A stretch of 64,000 nucleotides of DNA from Blastococcus sp. VKM Ac-2987 (GTDB lineage: Bacteria; Actinomycetota; Actinomycetes; Mycobacteriales; Geodermatophilaceae), in contig NZ_JAPVBG010000003.1 of assembly GCF_026967805.1 (NCBI RefSeq), forward strand, positions 930,001-994,000, written 5' to 3'. The position numbers and the translations under genes were made by a program. The notes below the pieces were generated by a model. It had not been told where the DNA came from. It searched no databases and saw only the letters and a program-made list of their open reading frames with translations. Positions 1,764 to 61,140 of the stretch are shown piece after piece; position 1 is the first letter of the stretch; every line of letters starts with the position of its first letter.

Positions 1764-2569
1764 GCCACCACCCCGGTGAGCTCGGCGCAGACCTCGGCCG
1801 CCAGGAGGTCCGTCTGCGCGGCCCGCCAGTCGGGGGCGCCGTGCGGGTCGTCGTACCAGCCGACATCGTTCCCCGCGTCGGCCACGGCCCGGCGCACCGC
1901 GCCCGCGGAGGGCGCCGGCGGGAGCACGAGCACCACCGGCCGCGGCACCGACGCGGTGAGCGTGAGGACGACGGCGTCGGACTCGCGGCGGCCGATGACC
2001 AGCGCGGCGCTCCGGCCGTAACTGGTCAGGGCGGCCCGCCGGAAGGCCGTCGGCGCCCGGAGCGCCCGGCCGGGCAGCTCGACGGCGCGCAGCACCTCGC
2101 CGGGGCCCAGGTCGACGACACCCGCGTCCCGCACGAACGCAGCGACGGGGGTGCGCCGCTCGGCGCCGTCGGGGGTCCAGACAACGGCCTCGCCGGCGAG
2201 TGCCGCGGTGAGCGCGATCATCGCGCCCGCCGGGAGGCCGAGGCACAGGTTGCCGCCGACCGTGGCGGCGGCCTGCACCTTGAACGACATCAGCAGGGCG
2301 TCGGCGCACTGCCGGGCGAGCACCGGCGAGGGCCACGGCGCCTGGCGGGCCTGCTGGACGGTGCACGTCGCGGCCAGCCGGAGACCGCCGTCCGGAAGGG
2401 CTTCCCAGGGCTCCCAGTTCATCGCGGTGAGGTCCACCAGGCCGGTGACGTCGGGCTGCGGCTCGGAGAACAGCCAGGTGCCGCCGGCCAGCAGCCGCTC
2501 TCCCGGTCGCGGGACCAGGCCGCTGCGGCTCTCCGGGCTCCGGTGGCTCTCCACCCAGGCGAGGTCCAC
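1760..2569 (-). CDS. Xanthine dehydrogenase FAD-binding subunit
   Basis: A 269-residue FAD-binding subunit of the CO dehydrogenase/xanthine dehydrogenase type. It passes electrons from the Fe-S clusters to FAD and then to NAD or oxygen. The GGTWLFSEPQP segment near residue 30 corresponds to the FAD pyrophosphate-binding loop, and the TVGGNLCLGLPAG segment around residue 105 is the second conserved FAD loop. Length is slightly below the usual 280-300 residues. It starts with GTG directly after the stop of the RpiR-type regulator (no intergenic base), and its stop overlaps the start of the fused catalytic subunit. The order regulator, FAD subunit, fused subunit suggests co-transcription at the distal end of the urate operon. 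Confidence 0.88.
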   Translation of the reverse strand: MDLAWVESHRSPESRSGLVPRPGERLLAGGTWLFSEPQPDVTGLVDLTAMNWEPWEALPDGGLRLAATCTVQQARQAPWPSPVLARQCADALLMSFKVQAAATVGGNLCLGLPAGAMIALTAALAGEAVVWTPDGAERRTPVAAFVRDAGVVDLGPGEVLRAVELPGRALRAPTAFRRAALTSYGRSAALVIGRRESDAVVLTLTASVPRPVVLVLPPAPSAGAVRRAVADAGNDVGWYDDPHGAPDWRAAQTDLLAAEVCAELTGVVA

Positions 2570-3385
2570 CTACTCCACCTCTCCCAGGAGCGTGTAGGTC
2601 GCGCTGATCGTCGAGATGCGGTCGCGCCCGGCGCGGCCGACCCGCGACAGGACGCCGTCGGCCAGCACGGCCACCACGCTCATCGCGGCGGCGTAGGAGT
2701 CGTAGGCGAGCGTTCCCTGCACCGGGCAGGGCAGCCAGACCCGAGCCGAGCCGGCGTGTCCGGCCGCGGTCGGGTCGCCGAGCAGCACCACGTCGGCGCC
2801 GGTCGCCGATGCCGTGGTCAGGAACCCGGCGAACCCGGCCGGCCGCCTGCGGAAGCCGACGGCCACCACCGCGTCACCGGGGCCGAGATCGGCCAGCTCC
2901 TCGCCGAGGACCTGGCCGGGCAGCGGGGCGAGGTGCACGCGCGGGCGGGCCTGCACGAGCTGCTCGCGCAGGTGCAGCGCGACCGGATGGCTGTTCCGCC
3001 ACCCGACGACGAGGACCTGACGGGCGTCGGCCAGGACCGCCACGGCCGCCGCGACCGCGGGCTCGAGCACCGCGGTGGCGACGGCGCCGGCCTCGGCGCC
3101 GGCGTGCTCGGCCAGGTCGGGTGGACCCGCGACCCGGCGCGGCTCGCCGGCGGTCCGCAGCGACCGGAGGTGGTCGCGGACCTCGTCGAAGTCGCTGAAG
3201 CCCAGCGAGCGGAACAGCCGGCTCATCGTCGCCTTGGACACGCCCGCGAGCACGGCCAGCTCGGCGGCACGGTAGGTGGCGAGGTCGTCCAGGTGCTCCA
3301 GCAGGGTCTCGGCAGCGCGCCGCTCCTGTGCGGTCAGCGCCGGGTGGCAGTGGCCGATCCGCTCGTCGATGCGCAGCCCGGTCAC
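2570..3385 (-). CDS. MurR/RpiR-family transcriptional regulator
   Basis: A 271-residue regulator with an N-terminal RpiR-type helix-turn-helix (about residues 10-85, containing LAVLAGVSKATMSRLFRSLG) and a C-terminal SIS sugar-isomerase-like domain (about 110-250) that in this family binds a phosphosugar or other small effector. It lies inside the purine operon, 73 bases after the M20 hydrolase gene and abutting the xanthine dehydrogenase FAD subunit. It is therefore a candidate pathway-specific regulator. RpiR proteins controlling ureide or nitrogen genes (for example AllR-like roles) are known, but the effector here is an inference. The GTG start at 3385 is the first start after the 73-base gap. 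Confidence 0.85.
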   Translation of the reverse strand: MTGLRIDERIGHCHPALTAQERRAAETLLEHLDDLATYRAAELAVLAGVSKATMSRLFRSLGFSDFDEVRDHLRSLRTAGEPRRVAGPPDLAEHAGAEAGAVATAVLEPAVAAAVAVLADARQVLVVGWRNSHPVALHLREQLVQARPRVHLAPLPGQVLGEELADLGPGDAVVAVGFRRRPAGFAGFLTTASATGADVVLLGDPTAAGHAGSARVWLPCPVQGTLAYDSYAAAMSVVAVLADGVLSRVGRAGRDRISTISATYTLLGEVE

Positions 3386-3458
3386 GTGCCCTCCTCGCTG
3401 GCGCTCGTCGGCCGCGTGCCCGTGGGTGCTCTGCTCTCTCGTGATCTCCCGAGCTCGG

Positions 3459-4700
3459 TCACGTGCGCGCCTCCACCGCGGTCGCGACCCGCAGGACCGC
3501 GGCCTCCAGCGCGTCCAGCCCGCGCGCGACGTCGGCCTCGCGGACGTCCTCCTCGGGGGCGTGGCTGATCCCGTCGGCGCAGCGGAGGAAGAGCATGCCG
3601 ACGTCGGTGACCGCCGCGACCGCCATCGCGTCGTGCCCGGCGCGGCTCCACAGCCCCAGGGGATCGGCGGCGCCGGCGTCGTCGGTGGCGCCGATCCCCG
3701 CGACGACCGCCTGCTGCAGCCACGGGGCGCAGGGCACGGCAGGGGCGCGGTGGGTCTCGACGACCTCCAGCCCGAGGCCCCGCCGGGCGCAGATCGCGCC
3801 GATCTCGGCGTGCAGCACCTCCCACATCCGGTCGCGGTCGGCGTCGGTGGCGGCGCGCAGGTCGAGGGTGAGGTCGGCGCGGCCGGGGACGACGTTCACC
3901 GCGCCCGGCCGCACCTCCAGCCGGCCGACGGTGGCGATGCAGTCGCCGGCCCGGGCGATCCGCTCGACGGCGACGACCGCCTCGGCGGCGCCGACGAGGG
4001 CGTCCCGGCGCCGCTCGTACGGCGTGCCCCCGGCGTGCCGCGCCTCGCCGAGGACCGACAGCCGGTACCGCCGGGCCCCGGCGATGGCGGTGACGTAGCC
4101 CAGCGAGCGGCCGGCGGCCTCCAGGCACGGCCCCTGCTCGATGTGCGCCTCGAGGTAGCCGACCAGCTCGTCCGGTCGGCGAACCGCCTCGCCCACCCGC
4201 GCCGGGTCGAGGCCGAAGTCGAGGAAGGCCTGACGCAGCGTCACCCCGCCGGCGTCGCGCAGGTCCCACCAGACGGGGTCCCAGGTGCCGGCGACCGCCT
4301 GGCTACCGAGGAGGGCCTTGCCGAAGCGGGCGCCCTCCTCGTCGCCGAACCCGACGACCTCGAGGGCGAACGGGAGGTCGGCGCCGCCCAGCCGCTCCGC
4401 CACCGCCACGGCCATGACCACGCCGAGCATGCCGTCGTAGCTCCCGGCGTCCGGGACGGTGTCCAGGTGGGAGCCGAGCACCAGCGCCGGCAGTCCGGGA
4501 GAGCGGCCCTCGCGGCGGCCCCACTGGTTGCCCGCCGCATCCTGCCAGGGGGCCAGCCCGGCCGCCGCCATCCAGGAGGCCACGAGCAGGTTGGCTGCCG
4601 CGTGCTCCGGGGTGAGGTGGACCCGCTCCAGGTGGTCAGGGCTCGCGGAGAGCCGGTCCAGCTCGGCGCAGCGGGCCAGGACGTCGGCAGCGGTGGTCAT
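3459..4700 (-). CDS. Allantoate amidohydrolase (M20/M28 zinc hydrolase)
   Basis: A 413-residue member of the allantoate amidohydrolase/ureidoglycolate amidohydrolase/N-carbamoyl-amino-acid hydrolase family (M20 peptidase fold). Two-metal site residues are visible: His78 and Asp80 in GSHLDTVP, Asp89 in SYDGMLG, Glu121-Glu122 in GFGDEEGARFG, and a later His in LEAHIEQGP. The RAGHDAM segment near the C-terminus supplies the last metal ligand. The family removes an amide or carbamoyl group, and beside allantoinase and a PucG-like aminotransferase the likely reaction is allantoate to ureidoglycine plus CO2 and ammonia. The ATG start overlaps the end of the aminotransferase gene by four bases. A ureidoglycolate or hydantoinase-pathway role is the main alternative. 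Confidence 0.88.
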   Translation of the reverse strand: MTTAADVLARCAELDRLSASPDHLERVHLTPEHAAANLLVASWMAAAGLAPWQDAAGNQWGRREGRSPGLPALVLGSHLDTVPDAGSYDGMLGVVMAVAVAERLGGADLPFALEVVGFGDEEGARFGKALLGSQAVAGTWDPVWWDLRDAGGVTLRQAFLDFGLDPARVGEAVRRPDELVGYLEAHIEQGPCLEAAGRSLGYVTAIAGARRYRLSVLGEARHAGGTPYERRRDALVGAAEAVVAVERIARAGDCIATVGRLEVRPGAVNVVPGRADLTLDLRAATDADRDRMWEVLHAEIGAICARRGLGLEVVETHRAPAVPCAPWLQQAVVAGIGATDDAGAADPLGLWSRAGHDAMAVAAVTDVGMLFLRCADGISHAPEEDVREADVARGLDALEAAVLRVATAVEART

Positions 4701-5917
4701 CCGGCGTACACCTCGCGCGCGGCGCCGACGCCGCCGCCGGCGGGCACCGCCACCCCGGAGCCGCGCAGCACCTGCTCGAGGGCAGCCAGCGTCGTGAGGA
4801 CGGCGTCGCGGCGGGCGTTGTAGCCCATCGTGCCGATCCGCCAGACCCGCCCGTGCAGCGGCCCGAACGAGGTGCCGATCTCGATGCCGAAGTCGTCGAG
4901 GAGGGCCGCGCGGACGGTGTCCGCGACGACGCCGTCCGGGACGTGGACGGCGACGACGTTGGTCATCTTGTGCGCGGGGTCGCCGAAGACCGTCAGGCCC
5001 AGGCCGCGGACGCCGGCGAGCATCGCGCGCCCGTTCAGCTCGTGCCGGGCGGTCGCGGCGTCGAGCCCCTCCTCGACCAGCAGCCGGGCGCACTCGCGGG
5101 CGGCGTAGAGCATGGAGCTGGCCTCGGTGTGGTGGTTGAGCCGGCGCGGTCCCCAGTACGCCATGACCTGGGCGAGGTCCAGGTAGTTGCTGGCGATTCG
5201 GGTGCCGCGGTCGGTGTCGCCGTCGTCGCGGATGCCGGCCTCCACGTGCGTGCGGGCCTCGATCAGCTCGACCGCCCGCGGCGAGAGGGTGATCGGCGCG
5301 CTGCCCGGCGGTCCGCCGAGGCACTTCTGCAGCCCCGCGGTGGCGACGTCGACCCCCCAGGCGTCGGCTTCGAAGGGGTTGCCGCCGAGCGAGGCGGTGG
5401 CGTCGCAGTAGAGGAGGACCCCGTGCCGGCGGCAGAGCTCGCCGATGTCGGCCAGGGGCTGGCACATCGTGGTCGACGTGTCGCCCTGGACCAGCGCGAG
5501 CAGCTTCGGACGCACCCGGAGAACCGCCTCTTCGACCACCTCCGGCGGGACCACCTGCCCCCATGGCACCTCGACGGTGTGCACCGCGGCACCGCAGCGC
5601 TCCGCGATCTCGCGCAGCAGGGCACCGAACCGCCCGAAGACCGGCACGAGCACGCGGTCGCCCGGCTCGAGCAGCGAGACCAGCGCCGCCTCGATGCCGG
5701 CGCGGGAGGTGCCGTCGACGAGGAACGTCTGCTCGTTGGCGGTGCGGAACACCTGGCGGTACAGCGCCATCGTCTCGTTCATGGTGGCGGTCATGAACGG
5801 ATCGAACTGCCCGACCAGCTGGGCCGACATCGCGCGCAGGACCCGGGGGTCGACGGTGACCGGCCCCGGGCCCATGAGCAGCCGTGGCGGGACGTCGAGA
5901 CCAGCGGTGGCGACCAT
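4697..5917 (-). CDS. Class V aminotransferase, probable (S)-ureidoglycine-glyoxylate aminotransferase (PucG-like)
   Basis: A 406-residue PLP-dependent fold-type I, class V aminotransferase. The PLP lysine is Lys198 in TAGLQKCLGG, and the GPGPV motif near residue 16 and LVDGTSRAGIEAAL are typical of alanine-glyoxylate/serine-glyoxylate enzymes. In Bacillus, PucG transfers the amino group of ureidoglycine to glyoxylate, giving oxalurate and glycine. The position between allantoinase and allantoate amidohydrolase makes that the best assignment. An upstream GTG would add ten residues, but the ATG at 5917 overlaps the allantoinase stop in ATGA and is preferred. Alanine-glyoxylate aminotransferase is the alternative. 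Confidence 0.87.
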   Translation of the reverse strand: MVATAGLDVPPRLLMGPGPVTVDPRVLRAMSAQLVGQFDPFMTATMNETMALYRQVFRTANEQTFLVDGTSRAGIEAALVSLLEPGDRVLVPVFGRFGALLREIAERCGAAVHTVEVPWGQVVPPEVVEEAVLRVRPKLLALVQGDTSTTMCQPLADIGELCRRHGVLLYCDATASLGGNPFEADAWGVDVATAGLQKCLGGPPGSAPITLSPRAVELIEARTHVEAGIRDDGDTDRGTRIASNYLDLAQVMAYWGPRRLNHHTEASSMLYAARECARLLVEEGLDAATARHELNGRAMLAGVRGLGLTVFGDPAHKMTNVVAVHVPDGVVADTVRAALLDDFGIEIGTSFGPLHGRVWRIGTMGYNARRDAVLTTLAALEQVLRGSGVAVPAGGGVGAAREVYAG

Positions 5918-51329: not shown

Positions 51330-52940
51330 TCAATCGGTCGCGCCTGCGGCCTGGCCGACGGTCGACCGACTGGGTCCGCGCTGACGCCATGCGGCGACGC
51401 TGCGCGTCGCCCAGGTCGCACGGGTGATGCACTCGGCGGTGAGCCGGCGCAGCGCGGCTCCGGCGGGATGGCCGCCGACCTGGACGGTCACCGTGTGGAT
51501 GCCGCGCACGCCATTCGGAAACGGCGTGGCGGTGCCCTCCTCCTGCCATCCACCGCTGGTCGTGCGGCAGCGGACCCTCAGCTGGTGTCGGCCCGGGGTT
51601 GCGGCCCAGGTGGCCGTCCAGGGCCGCCAGGCGTCCGGGCCGAGGTCGACGCCGAGGGCGACGTCGGTCCACGCGCCGCCGTCGACCTGCACCTGTACGC
51701 GGTCGACGCCGACCGGGGGCGCCCAGGCGTAGCCGCGAAGGGTGACCTGGCCGGGCGCGACGCGCCCGTGTGAGCCGGGTGCGTCGATGCGGGACGCAGG
51801 GTGGACCGGGTAGGTGCCGTCGGCCCAGCCGCGGGAGCCCCAGTAGGACAGCGGCGGCGTGGCACTGACGGTCAGGCGCCGCAACCACTTGATGCTGCCG
51901 TCCTGGCCGTGCCGTCCGGAGACGAGCAGCCGGGCGGGGCTGCCGTGCTCGCGGGGCAGCGGCTGCCCGGCCATGCCGACCGCGAGGAAGCCGTGCCGGC
52001 GGGCCACGTCCAGCGGCAGCACGTTGGTGTAGCCGTCGACGGCCTCGGCGACGAGCCATCCGTCGTCGTCGGTCACGCCGGCCCGTTCGAGCAGGTCGGC
52101 CAGGCCGATGCCGGTCCAGCGGGCGCAGCCCATCCGGGTGCCGCCGACCGGGTTGTGCACGCAGACCATCAGCAGGTCGCGCTCCTCCAGCGGCAGGGCC
52201 AGCACCTCGGGAAGCGTGAGCGACAGCGGTCGCTCCGCCTCTCCGTCCACGTCGAGCCGCCAGGCGCCGACGTCGGTGCGCGGCTCGGGCACCGTGACGT
52301 CGATGACGACCAGGTCACCGGGCTCGGCCAGCAGAGGGGAGACGCCACGGTGTGCTCCGGTGTCGGCAGCGGGGACCGGCGGCAGCGGCCGGGTGGGCGC
52401 GGGTAGCCGCACCTGGTCGCACAGCGCGGCAGCGGCGCGGCGGCGGGCCCGCCGGTCGGTGGCCACGACCGCTCCGGTGGCGGCTGCCGCGGCAGCCGCC
52501 ACCACCGGCGGACGCACGGGCAGCGGAGCGATCGCGAGAGCGGTAGCGGCGGTGAGCATGCCGGCGGCCGTGGCGGCGGCGGTATCCCGGGCGGAGGCGT
52601 CGCCGCGGCGGATTGCGAGGTATCCGCCGAGGGCATGCGGGGCGGCGGCGACGGCGGCGCCGAGCAGCGGCCGTCGGCCGGCCAGGGTGGCGCCGGTTGC
52701 CGCGGCCAGGCCGCTGGTGCCGGCCGCGAGCACGGCCAGGCCGGGCTTGTCCGCTCGGCCGACGAGGGCGACGCCGCCGTCGACGAGCATCGCCGGTGCA
52801 GCGTCGACCAGGCCGCGGGCCAGGCCGGACGATGGTGAGCGGCCGCGGCGGGTGGCGGTGGCGGTGATCTCCCCGGCGGCGGCGGCCAGCAGCCCGGCGA
52901 GCAGGCCGGCGGTGTGACGGGGAGGGTGCGAGACGGTCAT
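51330..52940 (-). CDS. Membrane-anchored sulfite oxidase-type molybdopterin oxidoreductase
   Basis: A 536-residue protein. Residues 10-165 are Ala-rich hydrophobic segments (about five helices) that anchor it in the membrane. Residues about 205-400 are the oxidoreductase molybdopterin-binding domain, with the Mo-ligand Cys260 in MVCVHNPVGG, the GCARWTGIGLADLL motif, and HGSPARLLVSGRHGQDGSIKWLRRL. A Mo-co dimerisation domain lies at about 415-500. The active site should face outside. The usual cytochrome partner is not seen. It probably forms an operon with the membrane protein at 52977-53435, behind promoter P2. Confidence 0.87.
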   Translation of the reverse strand: MTVSHPPRHTAGLLAGLLAAAAGEITATATRRGRSPSSGLARGLVDAAPAMLVDGGVALVGRADKPGLAVLAAGTSGLAAATGATLAGRRPLLGAAVAAAPHALGGYLAIRRGDASARDTAAATAAGMLTAATALAIAPLPVRPPVVAAAAAAATGAVVATDRRARRRAAAALCDQVRLPAPTRPLPPVPAADTGAHRGVSPLLAEPGDLVVIDVTVPEPRTDVGAWRLDVDGEAERPLSLTLPEVLALPLEERDLLMVCVHNPVGGTRMGCARWTGIGLADLLERAGVTDDDGWLVAEAVDGYTNVLPLDVARRHGFLAVGMAGQPLPREHGSPARLLVSGRHGQDGSIKWLRRLTVSATPPLSYWGSRGWADGTYPVHPASRIDAPGSHGRVAPGQVTLRGYAWAPPVGVDRVQVQVDGGAWTDVALGVDLGPDAWRPWTATWAATPGRHQLRVRCRTTSGGWQEEGTATPFPNGVRGIHTVTVQVGGHPAGAALRRLTAECITRATWATRSVAAWRQRGPSRSTVGQAAGATD

Positions 52941-52976: not shown

Positions 52977-53435
52977 TCAGCCGCGAGCCGGGGGCTCGGC
53001 GGAGGGTGGGACGTCCGGGGTCAGCGGTTGTGCGGCCATCGCCGGCGCGACGGTCAGGACGGCGCTCACCGGGCCCCAGAGCACAGCCCCGGGTGGGGCG
53101 AGCCAGCCGAGCACGGCCGGCCCTGCCAGCACGGCCACCGGGGCGCCCAGTGCGGCGACCACGGCACCGGCACGCCAGTCGCGGTGGAACAGCCAACCGG
53201 CCGCCAACAGCGCCCACCCGACGACACCGGCACCGGCGACCAGCCAGGTGGTCCCGCCCAGCAGCGACCAGCCGAGCTCGAGACCGGTCACGGCGACCAG
53301 CAGCGGCAGCAGCGTGGTGGCCCAGCCTGTGAGGAACTGGACCACCGCGGCATGGTGACTGCCCGGCGCGGGCCTGGCCGGCCCGGCCGGCGGGAGCAGG
53401 GTCGCATGGGCATCGGCTTCTCCTCGGCGGGCCAT
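52977..53435 (-). CDS. Hypothetical membrane protein (four TM)
   Basis: A 152-residue membrane protein with about four helices (WATTLLPLLVAVTGLELGW, TTWLVAGAGVVGWALLAAGW, GAVVAALGAPVAVLAGPAVL and GAVLWGPVSAVLTVAPAMA). I do not recognise the family. It lies 36 bases before the molybdopterin oxidoreductase gene and could be its membrane partner. Promoter P2 ends about 30 bases upstream of its start. Confidence 0.6.
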   Translation of the reverse strand: MARRGEADAHATLLPPAGPARPAPGSHHAAVVQFLTGWATTLLPLLVAVTGLELGWSLLGGTTWLVAGAGVVGWALLAAGWLFHRDWRAGAVVAALGAPVAVLAGPAVLGWLAPPGAVLWGPVSAVLTVAPAMAAQPLTPDVPPSAEPPARG

Positions 53436-53463: not shown

Positions 53464-53508
53464 ACGCTAGGGGCGCGGCAGGGGTGTCACGCCGGGGAAA
53501 CCGCCTGG
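53464..53508 (-). promoter_or_regulatory. Regulon promoter P2
   Basis: On the minus strand CCAGGCG, six bases, then CCGGCGTGA (53508-53487) form a box. The last six bases, GCGTGA, serve as -35. After a 17-base spacer comes TAGCGT (53469-53464). The box overlaps the end of the monooxygenase gene, whose stop is the TGA of GCGTGA. It drives the membrane protein and molybdopterin oxidoreductase genes. The layout matches P1 and P3. Confidence 0.68.
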
Positions 53509-54614
53509 ATCGACGGCTCGGAACGCACCGGCCGGGTGGCGTCGGCGGCCATGCGCTTGGAGAGGGTTGCCGCGTCGGCGCCGACGAACCCCAGCAGGGC
53601 CGAGCCGCGGCAGGTCTGCCACGGCAGGCCCAGGACGTACATGCCACGAACGTCGGTGACCCCCGCGTCGTGGCGGACCTGCCCGTCGACGACGACGCCG
53701 GGCACGTGCAGCCAGGAGTGGTCGGGTCGGTAGCCGGTCGCCCAGACAACCGCGTCGACGTCGACAGTGCTGCCGTCGGCGAAGGTGGCGGTGCGGCCGG
53801 CGAGGTGGAGGAGCCGGGGCCGGAAATCCATGCCCCGGCGGCGGAGCGTGCGGCTGCGGGTGCCGATGACGATGTCGCCCCGGGCACGCAGCCGGCGGGC
53901 GATGCGGGTGTGTGCGGGCACGGTGAAGAACCCGGAGCGGGTCAGCCAGAAGAACAGGTCGCGGCCGGCAATGCGCTGGGGCAGCTCGGTCGGCCGGGTG
54001 CCGACCGCGACGGTGACCGGCTGCGTGGTGGCGAGCTCGGCGGCGATCTGCAGGCCGGAGTTGGCGGCACCCACGACCAGGACCCGACCGCCGCCGGGCA
54101 GCTGCGTCGGGTTGCGGTACTCGGCGCTGTGCAGCTGCGGCACCTGCGGGTCCAGCCCGTCGGCGAGAGCGGGGATGTGCGGCGTCTGGAAGGGGCCGGT
54201 GGCGACGACGACCTGCTTCGCGCGCAGCGTCCCGGTCGGGGTGGTGGCCGCGAAGGCCCCGTCTGCGTCACGGTGCAGGCGCAACACCGGGGAGTTGAGC
54301 CGCACGGGAAGCGCGAAGTGGGCGGCGTAGGCGGCGAGGTAGTCGGCCACGTCGTCCTTGCTGGGGTGGGTGTCGGCCGGGGCGGGGAACGGCATTCCGG
54401 GCAGCGAGTCGTACTGGGCGGGGCTGAAGAGCCGCAGCGAGTCCCAGCGGGAGCGCCAGGAGGAGCCGATCTCCGGGCCGGCGTCGACCAACAGGAAGTC
54501 CGCTCCGCGGGCGGCGAGGTGGTGGCCGAGGGCAAGGCCGGCCTGACCGGCGCCGATGACGAGTACATCTAGGAGCTCGCGCTGACCGGCGGGGCAGGGC
54601 AGTGACGTGGGCAT
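53487..54614 (-). CDS. Flavin-containing monooxygenase-like oxidoreductase
   Basis: A 375-residue flavoprotein. FAD motif VIGAGQAGLALGHHLA (about 18-33), SSWRSRWDSLRLFSP (about 50), second Rossmann motif VVGAANSGLQIAAELA (about 150) and ATGYRPDHSW (about 305) place it with FMO/CzcO-like oxidoreductases. It is related to the protein at 43177-44391. It lies 45 bases after the membrane protein gene at 54660-55148, so both probably share promoter P1. The substrate is unknown. Confidence 0.86.
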   Translation of the reverse strand: MPTSLPCPAGQRELLDVLVIGAGQAGLALGHHLAARGADFLLVDAGPEIGSSWRSRWDSLRLFSPAQYDSLPGMPFPAPADTHPSKDDVADYLAAYAAHFALPVRLNSPVLRLHRDADGAFAATTPTGTLRAKQVVVATGPFQTPHIPALADGLDPQVPQLHSAEYRNPTQLPGGGRVLVVGAANSGLQIAAELATTQPVTVAVGTRPTELPQRIAGRDLFFWLTRSGFFTVPAHTRIARRLRARGDIVIGTRSRTLRRRGMDFRPRLLHLAGRTATFADGSTVDVDAVVWATGYRPDHSWLHVPGVVVDGQVRHDAGVTDVRGMYVLGLPWQTCRGSALLGFVGADAATLSKRMAADATRPVRSEPSIQAVSPA

Positions 54615-54659
54615 GGGATCTCCAGGCGTGGTGAGGAGGGACGGAGGGGGTGCCGGCGG

Positions 54660-55148
54660 TCAGACAAGGCCGACGGTGAGCAGGGCGGTGGCGATCATGA
54701 GGTCGGCGGCCAGGCAGGTCTCGGCGTACCAGCGGGGCACCACCCGGCCGAGGCGGTGGTGGGCGACGTCCCAGGCGGCGTGGGCCAGCCAGCCGGCGGC
54801 CAGCACGTAGCGCGCGGCGGCCGGGTCGACGGCGACCGCCGCCATCGCCACCGCGCCGAAGCCGAGCACCGCGGCGGTCTGGGCGGTCAGCAGCCGCCGG
54901 TCGCTCAGGTCGCCGCGGGCGGTGCCCCAGGCCAGGTAGATCACCGCGGCGAGCAGCACGCACCAGGCGCTGATCCAGGCGTGCACCTGGTCGGGCAGCG
55001 GCGCCAGGGCGGTGAGGCTGGCGGCGACCGCCGCGACGCCGATGCCGGTGGGCCAGCGGCGGGCAAGCGTGGTGGGCACGCCGCCGTGCCGGCGAGAACC
55101 CGAGGCTGCGGTCGCGTCGGGGGTGCGGGTGTCGACGGTGCTGGTCAT
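54660..55148 (-). CDS. Hypothetical membrane protein (five TM)
   Basis: A 162-residue membrane protein with about five helices, including GIGVAAVAASLTALAPLP, WCVLLAAVIYLAWGTA and TAAVLGFGAVAMAAVAVDP. The HAAWDVAHHRLGRVVPRWY segment contains several His residues that might bind a metal or haem, which is speculative. I have seen similar small proteins next to flavin monooxygenases but cannot name a family. Promoter P1 ends about 40 bases upstream. Confidence 0.6.
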   Translation of the reverse strand: MTSTVDTRTPDATAASGSRRHGGVPTTLARRWPTGIGVAAVAASLTALAPLPDQVHAWISAWCVLLAAVIYLAWGTARGDLSDRRLLTAQTAAVLGFGAVAMAAVAVDPAAARYVLAAGWLAHAAWDVAHHRLGRVVPRWYAETCLAADLMIATALLTVGLV

Positions 55149-55185
55149 CGGGAGCTCCTGGCGTCCGGGCTGTGGTGTCGCTCGG

Positions 55186-55230
55186 ACGCTAGGAGCGGGT
55201 TGCCGGCCTCACGCCGGCAAAACCGCCAGG
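55186..55230 (-). promoter_or_regulatory. Regulon promoter P1
   Basis: On the minus strand CCTGGCG, six bases, then CCGGCGTGA (55230-55209) form a box ending in the -35 GCGTGA. The -10 TAGCGT (55191-55186) follows after exactly 17 bases. It lies just after the stop of the LAL regulator gene and 38 bases before the start of the membrane protein gene. Confidence 0.7.
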
Positions 55231-55264
55231 TCGGCTGCCGGGGCGCGTCGCAGCAGCCGGCCGG

Positions 55265-57982
55265 TCAGAGGTCCAGCGAGAGCGCGGTGAGCTCGGCGCG
55301 GGAGGCCACGTTGAGCTTGCTGAACACGTTGCGCAGGTGGAAGTCGACGGTGCGCGGGGACACGAACAGCCGCGCGGCGACGTCCCGGTTGGACAGCCCC
55401 TGCCGCACGAGTGCCGCGACCTGGCGCTCCTGGGCGGTCAGGTGGGTGGACGTGGTGACGTCGCGGCGGCGGGCGGTCTCCCCGGAGGCGCGCAGCTCCT
55501 GCGCGGCGCGTTCGGCCCACGGCGCCGCGCCCAGCTCCTCGAACAGCGCCAGCGCCGCCCGCAGGTGCGCACGGGCGTCCACCCGGCGTCGCGCGCGGCG
55601 CAGGTACTCACCGAGGGCCAGCTCGGTGCGCGCCCGATCGGGTACCCGCAGCGACGCCGTGAGGGCGGCCAGGGCGCGGCGGAAGTGCTGCTCAGCGTCG
55701 CCGTCGCCGGCGAGCAGGGCGCGGCCGTGCTCCACGGCGGCGACCGCGGCCGGGGCGCGCGTGCCGGCCGCGAACGCCTCCAGCTCGGCCAGCCAGGTGC
55801 GTGCGAGATCCTCCCGGCCGGCGCGGACCGCGGCATCGATCCGGTCCAGAGCGGCCATGCGGCGGTACGCCGGGGAGCTGATCTGCTCGAGGTGGTGCAG
55901 CGCGGACGCCGGCTGCCGGGCGCGCAGCCCCTGCGCCCAGTGCACCAGGTCGACCACGATGGATTCGGTGAGCCCGACCGGGTGCGCGTCCCGGATCGCC
56001 GACACGTCCGCCACGTGCTGATCGGAGGCGTCGTCCCCGCGCAGCGCGCCGAGCAGGGCCAGCTCGGCGGTCGGCAGCGCGGTCAGCCCTGCATGCCCCG
56101 TGCTCGCGGTCAACGTCAGCGCCTCGTTCGCGGCGCCGGCCGCCTGCGACCAGGCGCCGGTGGCGATCTGGAACAGCGCTCCGCGGGTGAGCGCGTGCTC
56201 CACCATGCTCAGCGCGCCCGCGCTCCGGGCGGCGGTCAGCTGCTGCTGGTGCAGCCGCAGGCCGCGTTCGTCGTCATCGATCAGCATCGCTGCGACGCCG
56301 AGGTTCGGCTGCAGCACGTGATCGTCCACCACGATGTCGTCGGTGAGGGTGAAGGCGTCGTGGAAGCAGTCGGTCGCGGTGGCCCAGTCCTCACGGCGGA
56401 CAGCGCGGAATCCGTGCAGCAGGGCGGAGGCGGCCCGGAAGTGCGGGGCGGCGTCCTTCCCGGGCGGAGGGACCAGCGTGGCCGGATCGAACTCCCGCGC
56501 GGACCGTGCGCCGAAAGCGGCCAGCGACGCGGCGAGCATCGCAAGCTGCTGGGCCAGCGCCTCTTCGGCGCCAGCTGCCACCTGGGCGGCTTGCACGATG
56601 TAGTCGTAGCCGTCGTCGACCGAGCGGGTGTTCCACTCGATCTGCCCCTGCAGCGTGAGCAGCCGCGCGCGCAGTGCGGGCTCGGTCACGTCGGCCGCGG
56701 CCGCGGCCGCCAAGGCCGCCGCCCGGGACGGGTGCGCCCCGAGCCAGCTCGACGACGCGGCCAGGTACAGCCGCCGGCCCCGGGCCTCACCTCCACCGGT
56801 GAGTTCGGCGGCGCGCGCCCACGCGGCGGCAGCGGCCTCGTGCCCGCCGCGGCCGGCAGCCCGCTCGGCGACCGCGTCCAGCGCGTCGACCGCCGCCTGA
56901 TCCGGCCGGTCGGCCGCCGCCGCCAGGTGCCACGCCCGTCGATCCGGGTCCCCGGACAGCACGTCGGCCAGCGCCCGGTGGGCGGCGCGCCGCTGCGCGC
57001 TGGTGGCCGCCCGGTACACCGCCGAGCGGACCAGCGGGTGGTAAAGCGTCAGAGCGTCGCCGTCGACCCGGAGCAGACCGATCCGCTCGGCCTCCTCCTG
57101 GGCGTCGTCACCGAGGTCGAGACGAGCGGCGGCGTCCCGGACGACGGTCAGTCGGCCGGTGTCGTCGGCCGCGGCCAGCAGCAGGAACCGCTGGGCCCGG
57201 TCACTCAGATGCCGAACCCGGTCGAGGAACCCCCGCTCGACGCCGCCGGTCAGTGGCAGCGGCGCCGGGAGCGGCGCCCGGCCGGCCAGCTGGTCGCCGG
57301 TCAGGGCGGCGGCGAGCTCGCCGAGGGCGAGCGGGTTGCCGCCGGTTGCGGCCACCAGCCGGTCACGTACCGCCGGATCGACCGCACCGCCGGCCCGCGC
57401 CGCCAGCAGTTCCTCGGCGTCGGTCCCGGTGACGGCACCGAGAACTGCGGTGGGCAGGTCGCGAGCGTCGAAGCCGTAGGCCTCGCCGTCGCGGGCGGCG
57501 AAGAGCAGCGCGACGCGTTCGGCTTGCAGCCGCCGGGCGGCGAAGAGCAGTGCCGCGGCGGAGGCGTCGTCCAGCCAGTGCGCGTCGTCGACCACGGCCA
57601 GCACCGGCGTCTCCTCCGCGGCGTCGGCGAGCACGCTCAGCGTGCCGAGGAAGGCCAGGAACCGGTCACCGTCACCACCACCGGTCGCCTCGCCCACGGC
57701 CGCCCGCAGCGCCGCAGCCTGCGGTGCCGGCAGGCTCTCGATGCGGGCACGCTCCGGCCACAGCAGTCGCTGCAGCGCGGCGAACGCCAGCGGGGACTCC
57801 GACTCCACTCCCGACGTACGCAGCACCCGCATGCCGGAGGCGGTCGTGACCGCCTCCGCCAACAGCGACGACTTTCCCGACCCGGCCACGCCACGGAGCA
57901 CCAGCGACCCGCCGGCTCCGGCGCGTGCGGCGTCGAGCAGAGCGGCGATCGCCGCACGTTCGTCATCCCGTCCGACAAGCAC
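55265..57982 (-). CDS. LAL-type LuxR-family regulator (AAA ATPase plus HTH)
   Basis: A large LuxR-family ATPase regulator of about 905 residues. VLVGRDDERAAIAALLDAA opens the protein, Walker A is GVAGSGKSS (about 31-39), Walker B is VLAVVDDAHWLDD, a TPR-like middle follows and a LuxR HTH fills the last 65 residues (LTAQERQVAALVRQG, VAARLFVSPRTVDFH). I chose the GTG at 57982; GTG codons further upstream would overlap the divergent promoter P3. Being central to the genes with the shared promoter box, it is the best candidate for the activator that binds it. Confidence 0.87.
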   Translation of the reverse strand: MLVGRDDERAAIAALLDAARAGAGGSLVLRGVAGSGKSSLLAEAVTTASGMRVLRTSGVESESPLAFAALQRLLWPERARIESLPAPQAAALRAAVGEATGGGDGDRFLAFLGTLSVLADAAEETPVLAVVDDAHWLDDASAAALLFAARRLQAERVALLFAARDGEAYGFDARDLPTAVLGAVTGTDAEELLAARAGGAVDPAVRDRLVAATGGNPLALGELAAALTGDQLAGRAPLPAPLPLTGGVERGFLDRVRHLSDRAQRFLLLAAADDTGRLTVVRDAAARLDLGDDAQEEAERIGLLRVDGDALTLYHPLVRSAVYRAATSAQRRAAHRALADVLSGDPDRRAWHLAAAADRPDQAAVDALDAVAERAAGRGGHEAAAAAWARAAELTGGGEARGRRLYLAASSSWLGAHPSRAAALAAAAAADVTEPALRARLLTLQGQIEWNTRSVDDGYDYIVQAAQVAAGAEEALAQQLAMLAASLAAFGARSAREFDPATLVPPPGKDAAPHFRAASALLHGFRAVRREDWATATDCFHDAFTLTDDIVVDDHVLQPNLGVAAMLIDDDERGLRLHQQQLTAARSAGALSMVEHALTRGALFQIATGAWSQAAGAANEALTLTASTGHAGLTALPTAELALLGALRGDDASDQHVADVSAIRDAHPVGLTESIVVDLVHWAQGLRARQPASALHHLEQISSPAYRRMAALDRIDAAVRAGREDLARTWLAELEAFAAGTRAPAAVAAVEHGRALLAGDGDAEQHFRRALAALTASLRVPDRARTELALGEYLRRARRRVDARAHLRAALALFEELGAAPWAERAAQELRASGETARRRDVTTSTHLTAQERQVAALVRQGLSNRDVAARLFVSPRTVDFHLRNVFSKLNVASRAELTALSLDL

Positions 57983-58028
57983 GACCGGGACCGTACCGAT
58001 CGGAGCGGGCCAGGCCCCGGATCGAGAA

Positions 58029-58073
58029 CCTGGCGAAATCACCGGCGTGGGTGATCCCGGCGATGGCGAGCGT
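58029..58073 (+). promoter_or_regulatory. Regulon promoter P3
   Basis: CCTGGCG, six bases, then CCGGCGTGG (58029-58050) repeat the box of P1 and P2 in the opposite direction. The -35 is GCGTGG, the spacer is 17 bases and the -10 is GAGCGT (58068-58073), one base from TAGCGT. It drives the DHA2 transporter gene, and the same site could autoregulate the divergent LAL gene. Confidence 0.65.
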
Positions 58074-58110: not shown

Positions 58111-59634
58111 ATGTCGGCCCATCCCAGCGCCGAACCGGCGGCGCTCACCCCCCGGCACCAGCCGCAGCACGCGCCCGGTCACCACACCGCGCGCACCGCG
58201 CCGGGCCACCCGTCGCCGCCCGCGGACGAGCCGCGCCGGCCGTGGACGGTGTTCGCGCTGATGATCGCCGCCCAGTTCATGGTGATCCTTGACGTGTCGG
58301 TGGTGAACGTCGCCCTACCCAGCATCAGCGACGCCCTGCAGCTGTCCGCCGCCGACTATCAGTGGACGGTCAGCGCCTACGTGCTGCTGTCCGGTGGGTT
58401 GCTGCTGCTCGGCGGGCGGATCGCCGACCTGCTGAACCGACGGCGGGCGTTTCTCGCCGGCGTCGGCGTGTTCACCGCGGCCTCGCTGGTGAGCGGCCTG
58501 GCCCAGACCCCGCTCACGCTGATCCTGGCGCGGGCCGCGCAGGGCGCCGGTGCCGCGCTGCTCACCCCGGCTGCGCTGTCGATCATCATGACCGCCTACG
58601 CCGGCCGGCAGCGGCAAACCGCGCTCGCCGTGTGGGGGACCGTCGGCAGCCTGGGCATCGCCGCCGGCGTGCTGTTCGGCGGCGCGCTGACCAGCGCCCT
58701 GGGCTGGCGCGCGGTGTTCTTCATCAACGTGCCGATCGGTGCCGCGGTGGCCCTCGGCACGCTGCGGACAGTGGCCCGCGGTGGTGCGCAGCGCGGCGCG
58801 CTGCGCCGGCTCGACGTGCCGGGCGCGCTCACCCTGGTCACCGGGCTGCTGGCGCTGGTCTTCGGCATCGAGGCCACCCGCTCGGCCGGGTGGACCGCAC
58901 CTCGCACCTGGCTCGCCCTGGCCCTCGCCGCGGTCCTGCTGACCGCGTTCGCGCGGGTGGAGCGCCGCGCCGCCGACCCGCTGGTGCCACCGTCGACCTG
59001 GCGGATCCGGTCGCTGATCTCCGCCTCGGCGGTCATGGCCGGCGTCACCGGCGTCGTGGTCGGCGCGATCTTCCTGTCCTCGCTGTACCTGCAGGACATC
59101 ATCGGCGCGTCCCCGGTCATCGCCGGGCTGCAGTTCCTGCCGCTGGCCGCCGCGATCACTCTGGCCGCCGCCGTCGCGTCGAAGGTCATCGGCCGCCTCG
59201 GCGCCCGCGCGCTGATCCTCGGCGGGCTGGTCGTCATGGCCGGCGGCGTGCTGCTGCTGGGGGCCAACGCGGGTGGCACGTCCTACGCCGCCGACGTGCT
59301 GCCCGGGTTCATGCTGGTCGGCGCCGGCGTCGGACCGATGTTCGTCGCCATCGCCGTCGCCGCCATGAGCGACGTGCCGGCCGAGAAGTCGGGGCTCGCG
59401 TCCGGGCTGATGATGACCGGCCACGAGATCGGCGCCGCCCTGGGCGTCGCGGCGCTCACCGCCATCGCCGGCGACCTCGCCACACAGGCGGGTCTCATCG
59501 ACGGCTACGGACGCGCCTTCACCGCCACCGCCGGCGTCCTCGCCGCCCTGTTCGTGCTGGCCCTGCTCGCCGTCCCCGCCGGCAAGCCGACGGCCGGCGC
59601 CACCGGTCACGTGCACGGAGACCACGGCCGCTGA
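58111..59634 (+). CDS. MFS transporter, DHA2 (EmrB/QacA) family
   Basis: A 507-residue transporter with about 14 TM helices. FMVILDVSVVNVALPSISD is the helix 1 motif of the DHA2 drug:H+ antiporter family, GGRIADLLNRRRAFLAG is motif A, and GPMFVAIAVAAMSDVP lies in the later half. Exports drugs, dyes or metabolites. The ATG follows AGGAGGAG. Its promoter shares the regulon box, so its substrate may be made or oxidised by the nearby flavin and molybdenum enzymes. Confidence 0.9.
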   Translation: MSAHPSAEPAALTPRHQPQHAPGHHTARTAPGHPSPPADEPRRPWTVFALMIAAQFMVILDVSVVNVALPSISDALQLSAADYQWTVSAYVLLSGGLLLLGGRIADLLNRRRAFLAGVGVFTAASLVSGLAQTPLTLILARAAQGAGAALLTPAALSIIMTAYAGRQRQTALAVWGTVGSLGIAAGVLFGGALTSALGWRAVFFINVPIGAAVALGTLRTVARGGAQRGALRRLDVPGALTLVTGLLALVFGIEATRSAGWTAPRTWLALALAAVLLTAFARVERRAADPLVPPSTWRIRSLISASAVMAGVTGVVVGAIFLSSLYLQDIIGASPVIAGLQFLPLAAAITLAAAVASKVIGRLGARALILGGLVVMAGGVLLLGANAGGTSYAADVLPGFMLVGAGVGPMFVAIAVAAMSDVPAEKSGLASGLMMTGHEIGAALGVAALTAIAGDLATQAGLIDGYGRAFTATAGVLAALFVLALLAVPAGKPTAGATGHVHGDHGR

Positions 59635-59649: not shown

Positions 59650-59704
59650 CCCGGCGACAAACCCGGCGAAATGCCCGGTGAGAAGGCCGCCGGTCCGCGG
59701 CGAC
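59650..59704 (+). promoter_or_regulatory. Possible weaker regulon box P4
   Basis: CCCGGCG, six bases, then CCGGCGAAA (59650-59671) keeps the spacing of the regulon box, and a second overlapping half (CCCGGCGAAATGCCCGGTGA, 59662-59681) follows. The expected -10 positions (GCCGGT at 59689 or GGCGAC at 59699) are poor. It lies upstream of the metallochaperone gene. Confidence 0.4.
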
Positions 59705-59749
59705 TCTTCCCACCGACCGATCGCACCACCAACCCTCCGAGGAGTTCCC

Positions 59750-59983
59750 ATGCTGTCCGGCACCCCCCGCACCTTCATCGGCTCGACCACCTTCACCGTC
59801 ACCGGCATGACCTGCGCGCACTGCCAGCGTGCGGTCACCGAGGAGATCGCCGCCGTCGACGGCGTCGAGTCCGTCACCGTCGACGTGGCCAGCGGCACCG
59901 TCACCGTCACCGCCGACCGCCCCGTGGACCGCGCGGACATCGCCGCCGCGGTCGACGAGGCCGGCTACACCCTCCGGTCCTGA
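59750..59983 (+). CDS. Heavy-metal-associated (CopZ-like) protein
   Basis: A 77-residue HMA-domain protein with the metal-binding motif GMTCAHC (about 19-25) and the beta-alpha-beta pattern of copper chaperones (VTEEIAAVDGVESVTVDVAS, AAVDEAGYTL). It would carry Cu(I) or another soft metal in the cytoplasm. No copper ATPase or CsoR gene is adjacent, which is unusual. GAGGAG precedes the ATG. Confidence 0.85.
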   Translation: MLSGTPRTFIGSTTFTVTGMTCAHCQRAVTEEIAAVDGVESVTVDVASGTVTVTADRPVDRADIAAAVDEAGYTLRS

Positions 59984-60092: not shown

Positions 60093-60230
60093 ATGTCCTT
60101 CGTCACCTACGACTACCTCGCCCGTTCCCGTCACCAGGAGCTGATCGGCGACGCCCAGCGCGCCCGGCTGGCCCGTTGCCTGCAGCCGCCCCGCCGGTGG
60201 CGGCGCCGCCTCCACCGGCCCTGCACCTGA
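60093..60230 (+). CDS. Small basic protein
   Basis: An ATG after GCAGGAG (nine bases upstream) opens a 45-codon frame: MSFVTYDYLARSRHQELIGD, AQRARLARCLQPPRRWRRR and a short tail. Similar 40-50 residue proteins (TYRMLATARHEQLLADA-like, ending in Arg-rich tails) occur in actinobacteria near transporters and regulators; function is unknown. The gene lies between the metallochaperone and the ABC exporter and may be co-transcribed with either. Confidence 0.55.
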   Translation: MSFVTYDYLARSRHQELIGDAQRARLARCLQPPRRWRRRLHRPCT

Positions 60231-60360: not shown

Positions 60361-61140
60361 ATGACCACCGTCGCCCCACCTGCGAGCACATCCCTCGCCG
60401 TCGCGGCGCAAGCCCGCGACGTCGTCAAGACCTACGGCCAGGGGGAAGCTGCCGTACGCGCCCTCGACGGCGCCGACGTCGCGATCGACTCCGGTCGGCT
60501 CACCGCGATCATGGGGCCCAGCGGCTCCGGCAAGTCGACGCTGGTGCACGCCCTCGCCGGCCTCGACACCATCGACTCCGGCCGGGTCCTCATCGGGGAC
60601 ACCGAACTCACCGCGCTGTCCGAGCGAGAGCGGACCCTGTTGCGCCGGGAGCGTCTCGGCTTCGTGTTCCAGGCGTTCAACCTCATCCCGTCCCTGACCG
60701 CCGCGGAGAACATCGCCCTGCCGCTCACCCTGGCGGGCAAGCGACCCGACCGGGCATGGCTGGCCGAGCTGGTCGAGATGCTGGGCCTGGGCAACCGGCT
60801 CGACCATCGACCGGCCGAGCTCTCCGGGGGCCAGCAGCAGCGCGTCGCTGTCGGCCGGGCGCTGATCGCCCGGCCCGACCTGGTCTTCGCCGACGAGCCG
60901 ACCGGCAACCTCGACTCCCGCCACGGTGCCGCACTGCTCGGCTTCCTGCGCGACGCCACCCGCACCCTGGGCCACACGATCGTCATGGTCACCCACGACC
61001 CCGTCGCTGCCTCCTACGCCGACCGGGTCGTCTTCCTCGCCGACGGCCGCATCGTCGACGAGCTCTCCGCCCCCACGCCCGAGACCGTCCTGGCACGCAT
61101 GGCGCGCCTCGACGCTCCTGCCTCAGCGATCGGAGCCTGA
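60361..61140 (+). CDS. ABC transporter ATP-binding protein (MacB/LolD-like)
   Basis: A 259-residue ATPase of the MacB/LolD/FtsE group. Walker A is GPSGSGKST (52-60), the Q-loop is [18 protein letters not shown], the signature is [16 protein letters not shown], Walker B is [14 protein letters not shown], and the switch His lies in [16 protein letters not shown]. The ATG follows GAGAGAGA, a modest Shine-Dalgarno sequence. It forms a two-gene exporter or lipoprotein/lipid extrusion system with the next gene, only five bases away. Confidence 0.9.

What the first reader, a model, noticed from the sequence alone, without database searches (positions are those of the whole stretch)
53464..58073. Shared activator box plus 17-base-spaced promoter around the LAL regulator
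Three separate promoters (minus strand 55230-55186 and 53508-53464; plus strand 58029-58073) have the same structure: CC(T/A)GGCG, six variable bases, CCGGCGTG(A/G), a 17-base spacer and (T/G)AGCGT. The conserved spacing in three intergenic positions, reading in both directions, is not expected by chance even in GC-rich DNA. The units they drive encode a molybdopterin oxidoreductase, two membrane proteins, a flavin monooxygenase and a DHA2 exporter, all next to a LAL-type LuxR gene. This predicts a dedicated regulon with the box overlapping -35, as for class II activation.
Basis: partly seen in the sequence, partly recalled or inferred. Interest (0 to 1): 0.75.

Follow-up and report, generated by a model that had tools for sequence, protein, structure and literature searches.

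The report
Shared promoter switch of efflux cassette
A soil bacterium carries a transferable set of pump, metal-handling and redox genes that share one built-in DNA switch, most likely flipped by the large regulator protein encoded in their midst; the same switch-and-regulator pair recurs in many related bacteria, and we found no description of it.

Summary
The three composite sites are at the stated coordinates and are the only exact matches of the core in the 4.61-Mb genome. The window holds a fourth, 59662-59707(+), before a CopZ-like chaperone (0.16 composite sites expected per window). A fifth lies 1.4 kb beyond the window, before a copper P-type ATPase. In loci around LAL relatives the box recurs before orthologues of the same genes. 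Motif discovery that did not use the box finds it before 30 of 30 MFS upstreams. A -10-like hexamer sits at one of two adjacent positions in 91 of 93 boxes (shuffled mean 3). The box is better read as a 16-bp LuxR-type imperfect palindrome, CCGGYGRWWYYNCCGG plus a one-sided HGA, centred near -43. It tracks LAL proteins with recognition helix [DE]FHLRN. Best explanation: a mobile cassette regulon activated by the LAL (STAND ATPase plus LuxR HTH) in class II fashion. Box, spacing and promoter position are shown by comparison; LAL binding, activation and the inducing signal are inferred. New variant of a known kind.

The parts
53464..53508 (-). box plus -10 promoter (TAGCGT, 17-base spacer) in front of the memA-molybdopterin oxidoreductase unit
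   Evidence: orthologous box before memA in L018 with ATG 30 nt after the box
55186..55230 (-). box plus -10 promoter (TAGCGT, 17-base spacer) in front of the memB-flavin monooxygenase unit
   Evidence: same box before memB or FMO in relatives
58029..58073 (+). box plus -10 promoter (GAGCGT, 17-base spacer) in front of the DHA2 MFS exporter, in the LAL/MFS divergent intergenic region
   Evidence: motif in 30 of 30 MFS upstreams by motif discovery
   Evidence: boxes before orthologous HMA genes in many loci
51330..52940 (-). molybdopterin oxidoreductase of the sulfite-oxidase type (Oxidored_molyb + Big_7)
   Evidence: SoxC/SorA/SorT models hit far below cut-off
52977..53435 (-). memA, small putative membrane protein, no Pfam match
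53487..54614 (-). flavin monooxygenase-like protein (best NCBIfam models ArsO and MSMEG_0569, below cut-offs)
54660..55148 (-). memB, small putative membrane protein, weak DUF6010 (below cut-off)
55265..57982 (-). LAL regulator: AAA_16/STAND ATPase, helical middle, C-terminal GerE/LuxR HTH with recognition helix SPRTVDFHLRNV (start codon GTG at 57982 assumed)
58111..59634 (+). DHA2-type (EmrB-like, just below the TIGR00711 cut-off) MFS exporter
59750..59983 (+). HMA-domain (CopZ-like, below the NCBIfam cut-offs) metallochaperone
60361..61140 (+). ABC ATPase of the MacB/LolD type; no own composite box in this window, has one in three Nocardioides loci

Best explanation
The sites are operator-promoters of one regulon carried in a horizontally moving cassette. 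A dimer of the LuxR-type DNA-binding domain of the cassette's own LAL protein (a STAND ATPase) binds the 16-bp imperfect palindrome CCGGYGRWWYYNCCGG. Together with the conserved downstream HGA, this palindrome takes the place of the -35 element, centred at about -42.5 to -43.5. There the regulator would touch RNA polymerase (class II) and recruit it to a -10 element of the form NANNNT placed 17 or 18 bases after the box. When its N-terminal STAND switch is set by an unknown ligand, the LAL turns on a DHA2 exporter, a CopZ-like chaperone, a copper P-type ATPase, a flavin monooxygenase, a molybdopterin oxidoreductase and small membrane proteins, i.e. a detoxification/efflux response, plausibly to metals or toxic metabolites. 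Shown by comparison: the box, its fixed distance to the -10 hexamer, the start position implied by leaderless relatives, its recurrence before the same and before unrelated genes, and its link to one LAL helix type. Inferred: binding by LAL, activation rather than repression, ligand and physiological role.
For: Only 3 exact core matches in 4.61 Mb, all here. Of 15 exact hits to a relaxed box, only the 4 cluster ones have the hexamer; 0 of 11 others do. Relaxed box (<=1 mismatch): 58 sites in 22 loci with LAL >=65% identical (Markov 7.3, reversed 8) and 69 in 27 loci at 50-65% (5.7, 6), but only 9 in 16 loci at 40-50% (5.7, 2) and 3 in 15 loci <40% (3.0, 1). Motif discovery on 166 upstreams without using the box finds it: 109 of 166, with 30/30 MFS, 27/36 HMA and 4/4 memB. 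Start codon 30-31 nt after the box, with no later ribosome-site start, in 7 genes of unrelated kinds. In 112 family genomes, searched by the box itself, 50 of 67 strict boxes lie within 20 kb of a LAL >=57% identical; the other 3 in such genomes stand before MoCo, HMA and MFS genes. Composite site in 42 of 48 loci with helix [DE]FHLRN against 2 of 26 without. Four full-length LALs of the same family at 50-52% identity with helix VEYHLSN have no composite or strict box within the 11-14 kb read.
Against: No binding or transcription data. LAL, targets and boxes are inherited as one block: in 68 of the 91 family genomes without a full-length LAL >=57%, the best MFS is 45% and the best MoCo 41% identical. 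So co-occurrence alone cannot fully tell LAL from another factor in the cassette. The 79 loci were gathered with the LAL as query, so co-location there is by construction. The helix-box association is not corrected for relatedness. Six of 48 [DE]FHLRN loci lack a composite site, three of them on long loci. FMO 11/20, ABC 3/15, LAL 31/51 and MoCo 0/6 upstreams have the motif, partly because genes sit inside operons. 14 of the 67 strict boxes occur in 12 genomes without a LAL >=57%. Of their four kinds, one example each was inspected: two clearly coding, one probably coding, one unclear. The symmetry of the box is imperfect. A palindrome over -35 could also repress.
Confidence: 0.8

Rival explanations
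1. The boxes are operators of a different DNA-binding protein (another LuxR/NarL-type response regulator or a factor elsewhere in the cassette), and the LAL is merely a neighbour.
For: Response regulators such as OsdR also use 16-bp GC-rich palindromes (PMC5069765, passages). The cassette travels as one unit, so linkage is not proof.
Against: The LAL is the only DNA-binding protein recognised among the ten window proteins scanned with Pfam. Box presence follows the LAL recognition helix (42 of 48 against 2 of 26; among LALs under 52% identity 6 of 7 against 1 of 25). Four family genomes with a 50-52% LAL of another helix type have neither box nor cassette nearby. OsdR's consensus AGGGCCGATCGGCCCT is different.
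Confidence: 0.12
2. The LAL binds there as a repressor: the palindrome overlaps -35, and binding blocks RNA polymerase until a ligand releases it.
For: The position overlaps -35, where repressors also bind (recalled). One LAL-type regulator of Streptomyces (SCO6993) was reported as a repressor with palindromic sites (PMC9628970, passages).
Against: The hexamer is held at one of two exact distances in 91/93 sites, as expected if box and RNA polymerase act together. In the aligned columns no -35 hexamer stands out apart from the box and its HGA. MalT-type LALs are typically activators (recalled).
Confidence: 0.13
3. The box is itself the -35 region of an alternative (ECF-type) sigma factor promoter rather than an activator operator.
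For: Fixed spacing to the -10, as in sigma promoters.
Against: The element is about 22 bp long with a 16-bp palindrome-like core, far longer than a sigma -35 element (recalled). The -10 is the ordinary NANNNT type. No sigma gene was recognised among the window proteins scanned.
Confidence: 0.04
4. GC-rich chance resemblance of three sites.
For: The bare 21-mer pattern read backwards also gives 2 hits in the genome, and a very loose composite has genome-wide background.
Against: Clustering, cross-family recurrence and the hexamer position.
Confidence: 0.01

Closest known systems
PAS-LuxR (PimM-type) operators of Streptomyces, CTVGGGAWWTCCCBAG
   Same: 16-bp palindrome-like site with AWWT centre, located in the -35 region of regulated promoters, read by a LuxR-type HTH (PMC9774167, passages)
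   Different: Arms here are CCGGYG instead of CTVGGG; the regulator is a 905-aa STAND/LAL protein with no PAS hit; targets are efflux/metal/redox genes, not polyketide clusters
MalT (E. coli LAL/STAND activator) and its MalT boxes
   Same: STAND ATPase plus LuxR-type HTH at the C terminus; activator of its operons (recalled)
   Different: MalT boxes are short GGA[TG]GA motifs (PMC9628970, passage); here one palindrome at a fixed distance from -10
SCO6993, LAL-type regulator of S. coelicolor
   Same: LAL class; binds palindromic sequences, also at its own promoter (PMC9628970, passages)
   Different: 606 aa, a repressor; [quoted passage not shown] here a sharp consensus across many genera
OsdR/DevR dormancy response regulators
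   Same: LuxR/NarL-type HTH (PDB chains of DevR match the LAL HTH), 16-nt GC-rich palindromic consensus for OsdR
   Different: Consensus AGGGCCGATCGGCCCT (PMC5069765, passages); two-component response regulators (receiver domain recalled) instead of STAND; dormancy/stress genes as targets

Membership tests
[quoted passage not shown]
   AAA_16 at 40-196 of the 943-aa ORF translation, E 2.5e-20; G31, G34, G36, K37 and DDAHWLDD invariant in 31 aligned sequences
[quoted passage not shown]
   GerE at 885-938 of the same translation, E 3.6e-17
LAL / STAND fold | NTPase followed by helical repeat sensor region | tested here: met
   AlphaFold2 pLDDT 89.2, pTM 0.79, helical middle; best PDB match is a STAND protein with TPR, 6mfv, E 2.4e-11 but TM only 0.30/0.37
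MalT regulon | MalT boxes GGA[TG]GA as operator | tested here: not met
   the conserved element is the palindrome found by motif discovery; full MalT model PRK04841 scores 36.6 against cut-off 537; MalT boxes were not searched for as such
PAS-LuxR (PimM) family | N-terminal PAS domain | tested here: not met
   no PAS among Pfam hits at E 0.01
PAS-LuxR-like operator (works like) | 16-bp palindrome with WW centre in the -35 region | tested here: met
   93 aligned sites, best symmetry centre 9.5 with 60% of pair cells complementary, the outer arms partly fixed by the search pattern; motif discovery without the pattern shows the same arms; position from hexamer and leaderless starts
class II activated promoter | operator centred near -41.5 to -43.5, overlapping -35 (recalled) | tested here: inconclusive
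   fits if the hexamer is -10 and the leaderless start codon is +1; no mapped transcription start
class II activated promoter | expression depends on the activator | not testable with these tools
   needs genetics
DevR/OsdR regulon | operator AGGGCCGATCGGCCCT-like | tested here: not met
   consensus differs

The most novel reading that the evidence does not exclude
A self-contained, horizontally moving stress cassette of Actinomycetota in which a STAND-ATPase (LAL) activator controls copper P-ATPase/CopZ, exporters and redox enzymes through its own operator-promoter. Operator and recognition helix evolve together: LAL relatives with altered helices carry altered boxes (L013 DFHLRG and L042 AFHLRN with CCGGG[GT]) or none (VEYHLSN).
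Probability: 0.35. Interest if true: 0.7.

Novelty: new variant of a known kind. Interest (0 to 1): 0.52.

Why it matters
LAL regulators are common in actinobacteria (recalled), but clear operators for them seem scarce; one study states that no consensus could be predicted for its LAL (PMC9628970). Here comparison yields a sharp consensus, the promoter geometry and a target list, so one LAL subfamily becomes directly testable: footprint, ligand search and regulon. It also gives a hypothesis for the LAL-flanked efflux/CopZ/P-ATPase cassettes seen in Geodermatophilaceae, Nocardioidaceae and Intrasporangiaceae.

Tried and rejected
Reading the box as a 12-bp direct repeat (CCGGYG at positions 2-7 and 14-19) is not excluded, since CCGG is its own complement. 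The palindrome centre at 9.5 scores best (0.60 complementary cells, next 0.55), but the arms were partly fixed by the search pattern. Covariation does not decide: 8/11 varies together weakly (32 of 2000 shuffles reach it), 9/10 strongly but as TT or AA, which is not complementarity, 6/13 not (225 of 2000), and the direct-repeat pair 6/18 also does (7 of 2000).

A very loose composite pattern run over 112 family genomes is not specific. Matches occur in 104 and 91 of 112 genomes, many with GC-only centres, and the backward controls are not rare. I used it only because it revealed the fifth site of this genome. Testing the box before orthologues in genomes without the LAL failed for lack of orthologues (68 of 91 such genomes asked). 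The class-wide LAL count failed twice. In 394 class genomes the strict box is rare (18 sites in 17 genomes, control 5). Of the 16 other genomes with a hit, G185 has boxes beside a LAL relative (48-52%) and G162 has a 56% LAL fragment on another contig. The remaining 14 have no LAL hit at E 1e-60 or only LALs of 34-49% identity elsewhere, so their boxes may be chance. LAL is not found on 72,556 plasmid records at E 1e-60. No Rfam family at gathering threshold and no tRNA in the window.

Literature searches that listed no description of this regulon or box: (listings only); two searches served comparison. Passages were seen of PMC5069765, PMC9774167, PMC6784220 and PMC9628970; no paper was read whole. 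The library holds open-licence PMC papers only.

Full report
OBSERVATION. The three composite sites exist exactly as described. In the whole genome (G000, 4,613,437 bases, 12 contigs) the core CCWGGCGN6CCGGCGTG has three exact matches, all in this 4.6-kb stretch. The pattern read backwards has two, so it is the clustering that is improbable. A looser box (CCNGGYGRN5CCGGYGNGR) has 15 exact hits in the genome. Four are in this cluster and all four carry NANNNT at the right distance; none of the other 11 does. The window as a whole has four composite sites against 0.16 expected.

GENES. Pfam/NCBIfam: molybdopterin oxidoreductase (Oxidored_molyb), flavin monooxygenase-like protein (best NCBIfam models ArsO and MSMEG_0569, below cut-off), DHA2/EmrB-like MFS (just below the TIGR00711 cut-off), HMA/CopZ-like chaperone, MacB/LolD-like ABC ATPase, two small putative membrane proteins, and a LAL with AAA_16 and GerE domains. 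The AlphaFold2 model of the LAL has pLDDT 89 and pTM 0.79. Its best PDB match is a STAND protein with TPRs, 6mfv, E 2.4e-11, though with low TM-scores of 0.30/0.37.

RELATED LOCI. A scan with the LAL protein found 102 relatives, of which the tool kept the best 80, giving 79 loci. L001-L003 duplicate the window and were left out of the counts from then on. Relaxed box (one mismatch), with Markov expectation and reversed-sequence control: LAL >=65% identity (window included), 58 sites in 22 loci (7.3, 8); 50-65%, 69 in 27 (5.7, 6); 40-50%, 9 in 16 (5.7, 2); <40%, 3 in 15 (3.0, 1). The composite (arms plus hexamer at two spacings) has 127 sites in 80 sources, 125 of them in the 57 with LAL >=45% and 2 in the other 23; reversed control 1. 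Motif discovery without the box as input, on 166 upstream regions of orthologues in LAL >=45% loci, converged on the same element in 109. It found it in MFS 30/30, HMA 27/36, LAL 31/51 (some may be the shared divergent region read on the other strand), FMO 11/20, memB 4/4, memA 3/4, ABC 3/15 and MoCo 0/6. Genes that are second in an operon are expected to lack it.

PROMOTER GEOMETRY. I aligned 93 distinct boxes from 42 loci (strict box, LAL >=45%, not in coding sequence by a GC3 test). The hexamer NANNNT begins at box position 40 in 21 and at 41 in 70; all other offsets from 24 to 65 give 0-6. That is 91 of 93. Shuffling the downstream bases gives a mean of 3.0 and a largest value of 10 in 2000 rounds; taking one box per locus, 40 of 42 have it. 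The 93 were selected on the 22-bp box alone, and the spacer columns carry little information. The two exceptions are L066, which has a different recognition helix, and L048, which has the usual one. Start codons called downstream (77 ATG calls of 88 boxes with a called gene) peak 55-67 nt after the box (41), with a separate small peak at 30-31 nt (7). In the wider set of composite sites 10 genes start at 30-31 nt. Three of these (L012, L014, L034 MFS) have a later in-frame start with a ribosome site; seven do not: L016 FMO, L034 FMO, L018 memA, L023 MFS, L039 HMA, L040 DJ-1-like, L032 unknown (a GTG). In these the start codon follows the hexamer by 6-7 bases. Leaderless starts are common in actinobacteria (recalled), so these natural cases place +1 there. 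The palindrome centre (9.5) then lies at about -43.5 (or -42.5 if +1 is one base earlier).

THE BOX. Consensus AW-CCYGGYGRWWYYNCCGGYGHGA. Its core is a 16-bp imperfect palindrome, CCGG-N-GA-WW-TC-N-CCGG. A direct-repeat reading (CCGGYG twice, 12 bp apart) cannot be excluded. The one-sided conserved HGA may belong to the -35 contact. A minority class (16 of 127, my count) reads CCGGT[CT]CG[AG]; the fifth site of this genome is of this class.

WHOLE GENOMES. In 112 genomes of the family, the strict box CCYGGYGRWHYYNCCGGYGNGA has 67 matches in 31 genomes (control 1). Twenty-one genomes have a LAL of >=57% identity over nearly its full length; two more (G070, G094) have such identity only in fragments and no strict box. 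Fifty of the 67 boxes lie within 20 kb of such a LAL, in 19 of the 21 genomes (my count from the two listings). Of the 2 misses, G041 carries the helix variant DFHLRG with variant boxes and G052 has near-miss boxes. Three further matches in LAL genomes are on other contigs; they stand before a MoCo gene, an HMA chaperone and an MFS gene, each a regulon member, the last at a contig end beside what looks like a LAL start. The other 14, in 12 genomes, include ten copies of one 22-mer that, in the one example inspected, lies antisense in a likely coding frame. Of the four kinds, one example each was inspected: two clearly coding, one probably coding, one unclear. Four genomes (G033, G035, G088, G096) have a full-length LAL of 50-52% identity. 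Its helix reads SPRTVEYHLSN, no composite or strict box lies in the 11-14 kb read around it, and the cassette's MFS, HMA, FMO and MoCo are not there. In 394 class genomes the strict box occurs only 18 times. In 68 of the 91 family genomes without such a LAL, no close MFS (best 45%) or MoCo (best 41%) was found: the cassette seems to come and go as a unit. The LAL tree of 31 rows has a 12-row clade (100/100) that mixes Geodermatophilaceae, Streptosporangiaceae, Micromonosporaceae, Intrasporangiaceae and Nocardioidaceae. Blastococcus groups with Intrasporangiaceae (97/94), which speaks for horizontal spread.

REGULON. Beyond the window genes, boxes stand before ABC ATPases, copper-translocating P-ATPases, an isochorismatase-like protein, DJ-1/PfpI-like proteins, ADH/quinone-oxidoreductase-like proteins, GNAT-like proteins (by eye), alpha/beta-hydrolases and a 57-60-aa conserved peptide. 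P-ATPases L029 and L014 pass the TIGR01511 cut-off clearly; the own-genome ORF passes at 398.8 against 397. That unrelated genes share the element argues against mere inheritance with one gene.

REGULATOR. Composite sites occur in 42 of 48 loci whose LAL helix reads [DE]FHLRN and in 2 of 26 with other helices (DAHLRN, EYHLRK, EWHLRK and the like); 6 sources without a readable HTH were set aside (Fisher 8.6e-12, not corrected for kinship). Below 52% LAL identity it is 6 of 7 against 1 of 25. The two exceptions, L042 (AFHLRN) and L013 (DFHLRG), carry altered boxes, a lead for helix-operator co-evolution that rests on two loci. The loci were gathered with the LAL as query, so only the genome-wide box search tests the link from the side of the box.

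MECHANISM AND NOVELTY. Most likely this is class II activation by the LAL dimer. Rivals are repression by the LAL, another factor, a sigma promoter, and chance (rejected). It works like PAS-LuxR operators (16-bp palindrome in the -35 region, PMC9774167, passages) but is not one: there is no PAS hit and the arms differ. It is a LAL by domain content, but its conserved element is not the MalT box. No description of this regulon was found (searches, listings). Function as metal/toxicant efflux is inference from gene content only.

Noticed in passing
L143:2436-2480 (G000:C6:995435-995479), about 1.4 kb beyond the window end: Fifth composite site of this genome (CCGGTCCGA class), its 22-bp box 62 nt before a copper P-type ATPase ORF; a GNAT-like ORF (L143:765-1325) spans the window end before it.
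   Followed up: yes
L143:2520-5782: The copper P-ATPase reading frame looks broken: in ORF 2520-4634 the family match ends before the ORF does, and P-ATPase-like sequence continues in another frame (4322-5782). Could be a real frameshift or an assembly error; relatives (L029, L014) have an uninterrupted frame. Not mended.
   Followed up: partly
L143:7201-9993: A second LAL/MalT-like gene (by eye, not scanned) lies downstream of the ATPase.
   Followed up: no
window 59650-59683: Three CCCGG(C/T)G units at 12-bp spacing overlap the fourth box, as if two boxes were staggered.
   Followed up: no
L013:6009 and 7242; L042:4300 and 7394: LALs with altered recognition helices (DFHLRG, AFHLRN) carry altered boxes (CCGGGG or CCGGGT arms), a possible natural specificity change.
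   Followed up: partly
L012:4139-4321, L024:17512-17688, L049:10903-11076, L082:11965-12141: A conserved 57-60-aa peptide (motif HNGYYAGDF or HQGYYAGNF) stands behind boxes; the one scanned (L049) has no NCBIfam match.
   Followed up: partly
G001:C4:219558 and nine other family genomes: CCTGGTGGATCTCCCGGTGSGA recurs away from any LAL >=57%; in the one example inspected it lies antisense in a likely coding frame, so it is probably a chance look-alike of the box.
   Followed up: partly
window 60093-60230: 46-codon ORF with start and ribosome-site-like sequence between the HMA and ABC genes; no Pfam match.
   Followed up: no
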